Shown here: piece by piece, positions 43,627 to 61,060 of the stretch | How the letters are laid out: each line of letters begins with the position of its first letter | How positions within the stretch are numbered: position 1 is the first letter of the stretch | NCBI GenBank assembly: GCA_010356995.1 | Contig: ML996703.1 | Location: forward strand, 248,001 to 312,000 | DNA from: Trichodelitschia bisporula | Lineage: Eukaryota > Ascomycota > Dothideomycetes > Phaeotrichales > Phaeotrichaceae | DNA: 64,000 nucleotides | Direction of reading: 5' to 3' | Position numbers and translations under genes: made by a program | The notes under the pieces: model-generated | Database searches by the model: none | What the model was told of the DNA's origin: nothing | The model's input: only the letters and a program-made list of their open reading frames with translations

Positions 43627-43950
43627 ATGGTCTTCCCTACCTCACAGAACCCCACCGCGGCCCACCCCAAGCCTCGGCCGAAGCCGGGCCCGCCTCCGGC
43701 GCCGCCAAACTCACCGGCGCAGAACCCGACCGCGGCCCACCCAAAGCCCAAGCCGAAGCCGGGCCTGCCTCCGGCGCCGCCAAACTCACCAGCGAACATG
43801 CCCACCGCGGCCCACCCAAAGCCCAAGTCGAAGCCGGGTCCGCCTCCAGCGCCGCCGAATTCGCCGGCGCAAATGCCCGCCGCTTGCCGTCCGAAGCCTC
43901 GGCCGGCGCCAGGTGCATCGCAACCGCCGCGGCCGCGGCCTCATTTCTAG
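43627..43950 (+). CDS. Small proline-rich tandem-repeat protein (tentative)
   Basis: From the ATG at 43627 (context CAAAAATGG) the frame gives 107 residues. After MVFPTSQ the protein consists of three 25-residue units beginning NPTAAHPKPRPKPG or a variant and ending PPPAPPNSPAQ, then a diverged fourth unit. The units are 75 bases in DNA. The frame is open far upstream (to about 43288) but that part looks non-coding. No signal peptide, Cys pair or domain is visible. Pro/Lys-rich arrays of this type occur in wall-associated or SH3-binding proteins, but no function can be assigned. The array could also be a non-coding minisatellite. Confidence 0.45.
   Translation: MVFPTSQNPTAAHPKPRPKPGPPPAPPNSPAQNPTAAHPKPKPKPGLPPAPPNSPANMPTAAHPKPKSKPGPPPAPPNSPAQMPAACRPKPRPAPGASQPPRPRPHF
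43648..43925. repeat. 75-bp tandem repeat, about 3.5 copies
   Basis: Three full copies and one partial copy of a GC-rich 75-base unit, each including GCGGCCCACCC and CCGCCAAACTCACCGGC-like segments. Copies differ by scattered substitutions that mostly keep the reading frame of the proline-rich ORF. Confidence 0.8.
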
Positions 43951-54564: not shown

Positions 54565-55314
54565 TCAACTCTTAATCTTCGACAGCAGGAAGTTCGTAGC
54601 CTGAGTTCCGGATCCATCCATAAGGTAGGCGAAATGGCCCGCCGTAACCAGCAACATCCCACCGCAGACACCATCGGAGGCTGCGCAAAACACCTTGACC
54701 TTGTCCTTGGGGTAGTTGGGAATGCCGCTCTTCTGCTGCGCGTTCTTGGTGTAGCCGAAAAGGACAACGCCAGCGACCTTGCTCCTCACCGTCTCGTCGA
54801 GCTTGCTGATGGCATTCATCATCACCGCCGTCCCTTGGCTGTCCTGCTGTTAGCCCGGCCGTAAATCTTAGCTGGGACGCGTACCTGTATCCACCAGCCA
54901 CGATGGTGCTCTGTGGGCACTTGGTGTGCGCCATTTGGAACATCCGGATCGCCTCATTGATAGCCCCCGCCGTGGTACCAGCCGGCGCCACATTGTCCAT
55001 CAAACCAGCCGAGTACGGCCCGCCGACTCCCTGGCACGCAACGCTTCCAGCTCCCAACTTCGCCTTGAGCCCCGAGCACACCGCTGGCCCCATACTCATG
55101 CCCTGAAAAGCATCAGCAACGACCCTCTCAGTCTCTGGTGTTCGGGACGCACCATGTTGCCAGGCTCAGTAGAAGCCCGCGCAAAGATCAAAGTAACCTT
55201 CTTGCACGACCCGCTCGTCAGATCATTCGCCGTCATCTGCCGGCGCTCCAGCTCCGTCGGCGCCGCAAGCGCGCACGAAATGAGCGTCGAAACGGCGAGG
55301 CTGAGGAACTTCAT
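54565..55314 (-). CDS. Secreted cutinase
   Basis: Exons 55314-55153, 55102-54885 and 54838-54565 give 217 residues, usual for fungal cutinases (alpha/beta hydrolases that cut plant cutin and other polyesters). The signal peptide is MKFLSLAVSTLISCALA, followed by a short propeptide ending ELERR, which a Kex2-type protease could cut. Then come SCKKVTLIFARASTEPGNM, and GPYSAGL. The nucleophile elbow GGYSQG is created exactly by joining exons 2 and 3 (intron 54884-54839). The other catalytic residues are the Asp in ASDGVCGG and the His in TAGHFAYLMDG. Four Cys (SCKK, KCPQ, FCAA, GVCGG) plus VCSG and VACQG fit the family disulphides. Transcription is from the minus strand with gene-poor DNA on both sides. 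Confidence 0.95.
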
Positions 55315-58466: not shown

Positions 58467-59258
58467 CTACAGCGCCTCCACGGCAGCCTCCGAGCGCGGG
58501 ATGTGGATCTTCGGGACGTTGACCTTGGGGATGTTGACCTTGGGGATCTCGATCTTGGGCGGCTTGGGGAGGTTGACCTTCGGGATCTCGATCTTAGGCG
58601 GCTTCGGGATATTGACCTTGGGGAGCTGCGGCGGCTTGGGCGCCAGTAGATCCTCGACGGCGGCTTCCGAGCGCGGTATATGGATCTTCGGGGGCTTGGG
58701 GAGGTTGACCTTCGGGATGTTGATCTTCGGGATCTCGATCTTAGGCGGCTTGGGGATGTTGACCTTCGGGATCTCGATCTTCGGCGGCTTGGGCGCCAGC
58801 AGGTCCTCGACGGCGGCCTCGGAGCGCGGGATGTGGATCTTCGGGGGCTTGGGGAGGTTGACCTTTGGGATGTTGATCTTGGGGATCTCGATCTTAGGCG
58901 GCTTGGGGATGTTGACCTTTGGGATCTCGATCTTAGGCGGCTTGGGCGCTAGCAGGTCCTCGGCCACGGCTTCGGAGCGCGGGATGTGGATCTTCGGGAT
59001 GTTGATGTTGGGGATGTTGATGTTGGGGATGTTGGGCTTCGGGATGTTCACGTTGGGGAGGTTGATCTTCGGGATCTCGATCTTCGGCGGCTTCGGGAGG
59101 CTCGGGATGTTGACCTTGGGGATTTCGACCTTCGGCGGCTTGGGGAAGTCGACCGGGAAGGCGGCGACAAGGGCGCTGTGGGGTATGTGTTAGACTATGT
59201 GGGAGAAGGGAGAGGTAGAAGCTTACCTAGCGCCGAGGACGGAAAGAACGACCTTCAT
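58467..59258 (-). CDS. Secreted Lys/Ile/Pro pentapeptide-repeat protein, novel-looking
   Basis: Exons 59258-59227 and 59175-58467 (51-nt intron, GTAAGC...CACAG) give 246 residues. A signal peptide (MKVVLSVLGASALVAA) is followed directly by FPVDFPKPPKVEIP. The rest is built of pentapeptides such as KIEIP, KVNIP, KINIP and KVNLP, broken by KPP. Three long units begin KIHIPRSEA, continue with VEDLLAPKPP (or AEDLLAPKPP) and run 51, 51 and 59 residues; a fourth start (KIHIPRSEAAVEAL) ends the protein. DNA spacing of the units is 153, 153 and 177 bases. The mature part has no Cys, Trp, Tyr or Met. There is no dibasic Kex2 site; the only Arg residues are in the HIPRSEA motif. Periodic Pro and alternating hydrophobics recall periaxin and AHNAK repeats. 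A wall or surface structural role, or processing into peptides, is speculation. Confidence 0.85.
58480..58998. repeat. 153-bp tandem repeat inside the pentapeptide-repeat gene
   Basis: The GAGCGCGGGATGTGGATCTT-type landmark (minus-strand HIPRSE) recurs at about 58490, 58668, 58821 and 58974, that is 177, 153 and 153 bases apart. Copies are nearly identical in DNA, so they arose or were homogenised recently. Within each copy a 15-base period follows the pentapeptides. Confidence 0.9.
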
Positions 59259-61060
59259 TTTTGAAGTGCTGTTGGCTCAAAGGAGTGTTGTCTGGTTGTC
59301 GTGGAAGCTGGATCGAGATATGATGCAAGAAGGGGCCACTTTATACCTTTCCAAACTTCAAACCACACCACCATAAGCGTTGGGGAAGCGAGAATTACCC
59401 ACGGGAAGCGAGATGCGAGCCATGCCACCCCACAACATGTCCCAGGGTCCATCGTGATATTTCCTCCAATGGATCACTCTGTTAACCCCTTGAGCGGCAA
59501 CCAAACCTAGAAATTAGTCCACGGTGTTAAACGGGCCGTTCCCATCGAGCTCTCCGCAATATGTTTCTCAACGTTCGAGACTAGAAGAATAGATGGGCCA
59601 GTTCGTTACGCGGGGAACGGGCCGCGTGGGAGCCCGGCATTTGCAGGGATGAGGCACTGGCGCGAGAGCTTGTGCTGATGTCGTTGGCACATGGGGAGAG
59701 GGGAACATGCGGAGAAGGGCTCGACAGATTGGCCCGTGGGAAAGGCAAGTCAGTTGACAGAAGGCTTGCGCAAATCTCCAGCCTTATTGCATGCGAGGCA
59801 CAGGCCCGGCGGAGATCGAGAGTGAGGCTAGGCGCAGCTGTGATTGGCGGCTTTTTTAAGAAGGTTAAACGTGCTTCCAGGTTCTATGGTGCGAAGCCTT
59901 GTCAAGCTTTGCGCCGTGTTGGACGGTTCGTTAATGTAGAGGCGGGGTAGTGCTCATCCCTCCGGAATTCTGGTTGAGATGTGGGCGTACTTGGGCGAGT
60001 GAGGGGTCGAGGCCCGCAGGCTCGGTTCGAGACCGCCGGTGGAGAGGCCGAATCGGGTTATTAGAACTAGCTCTCGAATTTTCCGATACGGTTGCGATCT
60101 CCATCTTAGTCTTGCCTCTGGTAGTGTGGGTAGAATTCTCTCCGTCGCTCTTCCGTTCCCAAGTCGAAATCGCAGCTCGAGTCACGTCGTTCGGGTTAAC
60201 GATCTTGTTAACAAGGCGATGAGGCTCGAGCACTTGAAACGTGCCCAAGCGAGGACCTTCATTGGAATTTTCCATGACGCGAAAAGACACAGGGAACACG
60301 CCTTGATGTTCAAAGAGCAAGTTGTTGAATCCAAAACGAGGAAAGTCTCGTCTCCCACGGGTGGAAAATATACGCTGCTCGGATGATGTGATTGCCCCTC
60401 CCAGATTTATGGTTTGCTGGCTCGCAATATCAACACGTGCGGCGCAAAAGTGATGGGGTCCAGACTCGTGGTGTGACAGCCTGGAATATAGTAGGGTCAT
60501 GGCACTGCCCACTATACACTCTACGTTTGAGGAGCAGGAACCTGCTCCTTCAAGCCTTGTCATATAGTGTAGTATAGGTCGGGATCCATTCGGAATGCGG
60601 AGATGCACCCAAGCGATGAACCGAATAGAGGAGCCCATCCGAAAATAACCTGCACTCGCCCTGTTGTCTTCCAGATTGGTTGCGACATCAAGACCGGGAC
60701 CTGTATTGGGCGTCGGACATTGGAACTGCTCGTTCATCTGGTAATTTCCGGCCTTGTTTAGACGATTTACAAGGGCGACGAGGCGAGTTGAGGCGGTTCC
60801 ACGGATCGGAGTTGTCCTTGCGAGATCTCATCACATGCTCCAGGGAAGTCATGACGTCTCACCAAACCGCTGCAGCAAAGGACTTGAATTGAAAACCTAT
60901 GAATGAAATTAGCAGTTAACTCGGGTATCGTCCCCCGCCTCAACCACGGCCATCGACCAGCAGAGGGGTTCTGGCATCCATGCCCAGCTCCCATATCCCA
61001 AGGCCGTAAAACGCCGCCATATGCCCGGATCTTGTTGATTAGTCGCTGCTACACCCGTCT
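59259..61060. other. Intergenic with one doubtful ORF
   Basis: Promoter side of the repeat-protein gene, then gene-poor DNA up to the PDCD5 gene. The only sizeable frame is listed separately. A hairpin-forming segment lies at about 60510-60580. Confidence 0.45.
59931..60737 (-). CDS. Uncharacterised ORF, 268 codons (doubtful)
   Basis: An uninterrupted frame with a true ATG at 60737. I recognise no domain, signal peptide or repeat in the protein. The middle (FEHQGVFPVSFRVMENSNEG, GTFQVLEPHRLVNKI) could be globular. Codon use is less GC-biased than in the sure genes around it, and the frame spans a DNA hairpin, so it may be chance. Kept only because of its length. Confidence 0.25.
   Translation of the reverse strand: MNEQFQCPTPNTGPGLDVATNLEDNRASAGYFRMGSSIRFIAWVHLRIPNGSRPILHYMTRLEGAGSCSSNVECIVGSAMTLLYSRLSHHESGPHHFCAARVDIASQQTINLGGAITSSEQRIFSTRGRRDFPRFGFNNLLFEHQGVFPVSFRVMENSNEGPRLGTFQVLEPHRLVNKIVNPNDVTRAAISTWERKSDGENSTHTTRGKTKMEIATVSENSRASSNNPIRPLHRRSRTEPAGLDPSLAQVRPHLNQNSGGMSTTPPLH

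What the first reader, a model, noticed from the sequence alone, without database searches (positions are those of the whole stretch)
58467..59258. Secreted protein made of Lys/Ile/Pro pentapeptides in 51-residue repeats
The sequence shows a signal peptide, one small intron and then almost pure KIEIP/KVNIP/KPP units with three near-identical long repeats, each opening KIHIPRSEA. I know no named fungal family with this pattern. The closest analogies are the hydrophobic pentapeptide arrays of periaxin and AHNAK. The repeats are nearly identical in DNA, suggesting recent expansion or conversion. The mature part lacks Cys and aromatic residues except the first few, and Arg occurs only in HIPR-SEA, so the PR-S bond is a possible processing point that would release equal peptides. 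It could be a surface or wall rod, an amyloid-like adhesive, or a peptide precursor.
Basis: partly seen in the sequence, partly recalled or inferred. Interest (0 to 1): 0.72.

Follow-up and report, generated by a model that had tools for sequence, protein, structure and literature searches.

The report
Secreted Lys-Ile-Pro repeat protein, fungal orphan
An unnamed fungus carries one gene, with the codon choice of a strongly expressed gene, for a probably secreted, positively charged protein built almost only from five-residue Lys/Ile/Pro units; it is most likely a stretched-out coat or matrix protein, and no described family was found for it with the tools at hand.

Summary
On the minus strand, 59258-58467, a 246-residue protein is encoded in two exons with a 51-nt GT-AG intron. 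A signal-like N-terminus is followed by 28 pentads such as KIEIP and KVNIP, against 0.36 after shuffling. KIHIPR|SEA occurs four times, but the pieces would be 61, 51, 51, 59 and 8 residues, not equal. The gene looks real and constrained: the two 51-residue copies differ by 9 synonymous and 2 non-synonymous changes, and codon adaptation is 0.76 against 0.36-0.48 for five other window ORFs. It appears single copy, has no Pfam match over cut-off and lacks Cys, Thr, Gly, Tyr, Trp and dibasic sites. Best reading: an abundant secreted, cationic, extended chain that coats the hypha or its matrix, working like periaxin/titin PEVK chains or the apoB belt without belonging to them. Main rival: a peptide precursor cut at HIPR|SEA; a kexin gene is present and Pro at P2 is tolerated, but P4 is His, not aliphatic.

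The parts
59227..59258 (-). exon 1, MKVVLSVLGA(S)
59176..59226 (-). 51-nt intron GTAAGC...CTAAC...CAG; unspliced frame has two stops
58467..59175 (-). exon 2 with stop
59160..59258 (-). signal-peptide-like N-terminus MKVVLSVLGASALVAA (span includes the intron; cleavage site by eye)
   Evidence: no signal-peptide predictor available
58977..59159 (-). N-terminal block, 61 aa, Asn-richer pentads, ends KIHIPR
58824..58976 (-). repeat 1, 51 aa, SEAVAEDLLA...KIHIPR
58671..58823 (-). repeat 2, 51 aa, SEAAVEDLLA...KIHIPR
58494..58670 (-). repeat 3, 59 aa, rearranged middle, ends KIHIPR
58470..58493 (-). C-terminal tail SEAAVEAL, no hydrophobic GPI-type tail
59340..59345 (-). TATAAA, first base 87 nt before the ATG

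Best explanation
A strongly expressed secreted protein, not yet assigned to any family, that works as an extended, cationic, amphipathic chain on the outside of the hypha. Shown by computation: the gene structure, the pentad array, no second copy found, constraint on the protein sequence and codon use like HSP70 and histone genes. Inferred: frequent Pro keeps the chain extended (polyproline-II or short beta); Ile/Val lie on alternate positions inside each pentad with Lys/Glu/Asn between them; the chain, net charge +20, adsorbs to anionic or hydrophobic surfaces (own wall or matrix polysaccharide, pigments, lipids, or a host or substrate surface) and forms an unglycosylated coat or matrix. The acidic SEA...EDLLA spacers break the array into blocks.
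For: 28 pentads, net charge +20 and pI about 10 for the mature chain; Pro spacing 5 in 27 of 57 intervals. P+E+V+K 55%, with Ile 72%, a composition called an extended entropic chain in titin and periaxin (PMC7072810, passages). Copies 1 and 2: 9 synonymous / 2 non-synonymous nucleotide differences, Fisher p 4e-5; random placement of 11 changes gave at most 2 aa changes in 3 of 20000 trials. Codon adaptation 0.76; same amino acids with the codons of five other window ORFs: mean 0.46, maximum 0.58 in 2000 draws; HSP70 segments 0.81 and 0.78; neighbouring cutinase 0.42; with other reference sets 0.74-0.79 against 0.35-0.49; the four sections of the gene 0.71-0.80. TATAAA 87 nt upstream. Weak PDB sequence hit to an apoB-100 stretch with six x-phi-x-phi-P pentads (E 0.025 whole protein, 0.055 mature part); apoB is described as an amphipathic beta-sheet belt around lipid (PMC12419007, passages). 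No sequons, no Thr; no GPI-type tail.
Against: No transcript, localisation or structure data; structure prediction was off. The apoB and LPP2 hits are weak and compositional. The hydrophobic moment of the whole chain is not above the best shuffles (0.68 against a maximum of 0.81). Codon adaptation suggests abundance, not place or role; the copies are not independent, and Pro codons favour CCG, unlike the reference. KPP dividers split the pentads irregularly (groups of 2, 3, 1). The invariant R|SEA junction is not explained by a plain coat.
Confidence: 0.45

Rival explanations
1. Multi-copy peptide precursor: cleavage after each HIPR by kexin or a yapsin-like protease releases cationic Pro-rich peptides (61, 51, 51 and 59 aa, or shorter if the acidic spacer is also trimmed) that act as signals, antimicrobial peptides or surface peptides.
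For: Arg occurs only at the four junctions, Lys elsewhere; SEA(A/V)(A/V)E follows 4 of 4. One P-domain (kexin-type) gene with protease motifs by eye. P2 Pro is among the top alternative residues (PMC8528282, passages); monobasic cleavage is reported as confirmed in killer toxins K1 and K28 (PMC13211469, passages). Acidic spacers beside cationic units resemble peptide precursors (recalled).
Against: P4 is His, not aliphatic; no KR/RR/KK; pieces unequal; the first dipeptide after the Arg is SE, not the XA/XP that Ste13 removes (rule as).
Confidence: 0.27
2. Secreted shield or effector-type repeat protein, decorating hyphae and acting towards a host or rival microbes, as Rsp3 does in Ustilago maydis.
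For: Secreted-type protein with repeats and no known domain; a cutinase gene lies about 3.2 kb away. Rsp3 is predicted to be a non-processed repeat protein without GPI anchor and decorates hyphae (PMC5923269, passages).
Against: Rsp3 was not compared by sequence; no Cys-rich part here; the neighbourhood may be chance; organism and lifestyle unknown.
Confidence: 0.15
3. Elastic or coacervating matrix protein (PEVK/elastin-like spring).
For: PEVK-like composition.
Against: No Gly; many Ile; no Tyr or Cys for cross-links.
Confidence: 0.08
4. Not a gene: low-complexity reading frame, or the real frame is the open antisense ORF 58501-59193.
For: A 230-aa antisense ORF exists.
Against: Differences between copies 1 and 2 change 2 residues in this frame and 5-10 in the other five frames; splice sites, TATA and codon use fit this strand.
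Confidence: 0.03

Closest known systems
Periaxin / titin PEVK-type regions
   Same: Rich in Pro, Glu, Val, Lys; pentapeptide format; thought extended or disordered (PMC7072810, passages)
   Different: Intracellular animal proteins (recalled); the curated periaxin motif has 0 hits here, the general motif 8; this protein has a secretion-type N-terminus and is cationic
Apolipoprotein B-100 amphipathic belt
   Same: Run of x-phi-x-phi-P pentads, 6 in one stretch
   Different: E 0.025-0.055 and short; a 4563-residue lipoprotein chain; no homology claimed
Kex2-processed repeat proteins (KEPs)
   Same: Signal-like N-terminus and near-identical repeats making up most of the protein
   Different: No KR, RR or KK; only monobasic HIPR|SEA
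Non-processed repetitive surface effectors such as Ustilago Rsp3
   Same: Secreted-type, repetitive, no GPI tail
   Different: Rsp3 has Cys-rich and QP regions and other repeats (PMC5923269, passages)
Rhizophagus AGL-type disordered surface proteins
   Same: Secreted, disorder-type tandem repeats without known orthologues outside their lineage
   Different: Those of R. irregularis and R. clarus are Pro/Gly/Ala-rich (PMC8786786, passages); here no Gly

Membership tests
KEX2-processed repeat proteins (definition of PMC6339444) | Repeats separated by KR, RR or KK | tested here: not met
   No dibasic pair in the protein; pipeline as described, itself not run
KEX2-processed repeat proteins (definition of PMC6339444) | Secretion signal, no membrane segment | tested here: inconclusive
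   Hydrophobic N-terminus by inspection and hydropathy; no SignalP or TMHMM
KEX2-processed repeat proteins (definition of PMC6339444) | At least three similar fragments after dibasic cutting, over 15% of the length | tested here: not met
   With no dibasic site there are no such fragments (inferred); cutting after HIPR would give similar pieces of 51, 51 and 59 aa
Kexin substrate, extended site (PMC8528282) | P1 Arg; P2 Lys or Arg/Thr/Pro/Glu/Ile; P4 Leu or other aliphatic | tested here: not met
   P1 Arg and P2 Pro fit, P4 His does not, at 4 of 4 sites; these are preferences, not absolute
Periaxin PEVK-rich region | [KR][AGLV]P[DE]X very abundant | tested here: not met
   0 hits
Hydrophobin | Eight-Cys pattern (recalled) | tested here: not met
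   No Cys; no Pfam match over cut-off
GPI-anchored or mucin-like wall protein | C-terminal hydrophobic tail; Ser/Thr-rich (recalled) | tested here: not met
   Tail SEAAVEAL; 0 Thr, 5 Ser in 230
Any Pfam-A family | Score over the curated cut-off | tested here: not met
   Only a sub-threshold hit to residues 4-23, 12.7 bits against 22.5

The most novel reading that the evidence does not exclude
The gene founds an unrecognised class of fungal secreted proteins: x-phi-x-phi-P pentad chains, cationic and unglycosylated, that adsorb to interfaces like a water-soluble apoB belt and are matured at monobasic HIPR|SEA junctions that surveys restricted to dibasic sites cannot see.
Probability: 0.12. Interest if true: 0.68.

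Novelty: new variant of a known kind. Interest (0 to 1): 0.42.

Why it matters
Secreted repetitive proteins without known domains are a common but poorly understood part of fungal surfaces. This one has an unusually pure and simple code, signs of strong expression and of constraint, and offers a clean test of whether a Pro-punctuated amphipathic pentad chain acts as a surface coat. If HIPR|SEA is cut, the published survey of repeat-derived peptides whose rule was read here (KR/RR/KK only) would miss such proteins.

Tried and rejected
Paralogues in the own genome: besides the gene itself, three weak matches out of 7 candidates scored. C2 (E 2e-4) appears to be another frame of a Gln/His/Pro-rich coding region; C4 (0.029) and C11 (1.65) are short pentad-like runs in other open frames. 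A junction-only search gave 4 matches, all in this gene. Counts of repeats are lower bounds by that tool's own statement. Relatives: 0 of 128 pattern stretches in prokaryote genomes; 2 of 38 in viral contigs, both carrying the same phage-like ORF, taken as convergent. No fungal protein or genome collection was available, so 'orphan' means in this genome, Pfam, PDB sequences and the searched text only. Five peptide strings occur in 0 papers. DUF3433 and cutinase hits suggest a filamentous ascomycete (recalled). A bacterial-type promoter/terminator scan gave nothing useful for this gene.

Codon adaptation: a first run read two reference loci (L009, L022) on the wrong strand and is discarded; one search replaces it. 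Its reference set is eight segments that I chose: three HSP70, four histone-like and one (L021) that looks by eye like a histone-fold transcription factor. Leaving L021 out, or using histone-type segments only, gives 0.76 and 0.74 for the gene. The five comparison ORFs were chosen by me from the 12. The reference segments themselves score 0.51-0.81, the HSP70-like L012 (not in the set) 0.57.

Of six copy-pair comparisons five had p below 0.002 and one (N-block against repeat 3) was not significant (p 0.28). The N-block pairs include an unreliable alignment of the signal region, and aligning by protein favours few amino acid changes.

Full report
What is there. The window lies in an unnamed 25.65-Mb, 30-contig assembly. 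On its minus strand a two-exon gene (59258-59227, 59175-58467) encodes 246 residues; the 51-nt intron begins GTAAGC, has CTAAC 18 nt from its end and ends CAG, and the unspliced frame has two stops inside it. A TATAAA starts 87 nt before the ATG. The N-terminus MKVVLSVLGASALVAA is signal-like by inspection and hydropathy; no predictor was available.

The repeat. After FPVDF the chain parses almost fully into pentads (KIEIP 7, KVNIP 5, KIHIP 4, KVNLP 3 and others, 28 in all, shuffle mean 0.36, maximum 4 in 1000), KPP dividers and acidic spacers opening SEA. All four Arg and all four His are in KIHIPR just before each SEA; Lys is used elsewhere. There is no Cys, Thr, Gly, Tyr or Trp in the mature part and no dibasic pair in the protein. 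Cutting after each HIPR would give 61, 51, 51, 59 and 8 residues.

It looks like a real and constrained gene. Copies 1 and 2 differ at 11 of 153 bases, 9 silent and 2 not (pS 0.245, pN 0.017). The other pairs (synonymous/non-synonymous) are: 1-3, 9/5; 2-3, 11/3; N-1, 15/13; N-2, 14/14; N-3, 11/25, the last not significant. In the other five frames the differences between copies 1 and 2 would change 5 to 10 residues, so the antisense 230-aa ORF is best read as a by-product. Codon adaptation against eight HSP70, histone and histone-fold segments is 0.76; five other window ORFs score 0.36-0.48, the cutinase 0.42, the reference segments 0.51-0.81. With three other reference sets the gene scores 0.74-0.79 and the five ORFs 0.35-0.49. 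The four sections of the gene score 0.71-0.80. Lys is AAG in 37 of 37 and Ile ATC in 38 of 39, though Pro favours CCG, unlike the reference.

Relatives. One place in the genome by DNA, protein and junction searches. No Pfam match over cut-off. PDB by sequence gives only weak, compositional hits: LPP2 (E 0.0046 with the whole protein, 0.016 with the mature part) and the apoB-100 belt (0.025 and 0.055), both runs of hydrophobic residues punctuated by Pro. None of 128 candidate stretches in prokaryote genomes encodes a relative; two viral contigs carry one phage-like ORF with PKIEIPKIPVPKIEIPKVNIKIP. Five peptide strings occur in no paper of the library.

Neighbours. A cutinase (54565-55314, PF01083, E 5.8e-52) lies on the same strand about 3.2 kb downstream; a protein with the dsDNA_bind domain PF01984 about 1.8 kb upstream; further off a DFP-domain protein and a DUF3433 protein. 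No peptide-modifying gene was seen among the seven proteins scanned, two of which had no family at all; the region was not scanned completely.

How it most likely works. I favour an abundant extracellular, extended cationic chain that coats the hypha or its matrix (0.45). Composition and format are like those described for periaxin and titin PEVK chains (PMC7072810, passages), and the pentads resemble a stretch of apoB, which is described as an amphipathic belt around lipid. The peptide-precursor reading (0.27) explains the junction best, and the genome has one P-domain gene with kexin-type protease motifs by eye. P2 Pro is allowed, but P4 His is not the preferred aliphatic residue (PMC8528282, passages). 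Killer toxins are reported to use monobasic sites (PMC13211469, passages). The KEP survey cut only at KR, RR and KK (PMC6339444: abstract, Results part 1 of 2 and the pipeline section), so this protein fails that definition. Neither reading is shown; the two predict different masses.

Papers seen as passages only: PMC8999023, PMC2515848, PMC13211469, PMC9769878, PMC8528282, PMC7329392, PMC7072810, PMC12419007, PMC8786786, PMC5923269.

Noticed in passing
L007:4986-5555 and L006:1952-2521: Phage-like contigs carry a 189-aa ORF with PKIEIPKIPVPKIEIPKVNIKIP next to genes that look like tail or baseplate genes (by eye): the same pentad format, apparently convergent.
   Followed up: partly
54565-55314 (-): Cutinase gene with two introns (50 and 46 nt), about 3.2 kb from the repeat gene; ordinary codon use (0.42).
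   Followed up: yes
58501-59193 (+): 230-aa open antisense frame across the repeat, read as a by-product of the codon make-up.
   Followed up: yes
43645-43871: Three copies of a 75-bp tandem repeat whose unit, read in one frame by eye, would encode a Pro/Lys-rich stretch.
   Followed up: no
L005 (own genome C11:825470-825784): An open frame with a kinase-like part (by eye) begins with runs such as IPHIKIPVITAPVIKTPAV that resemble the pentads.
   Followed up: no
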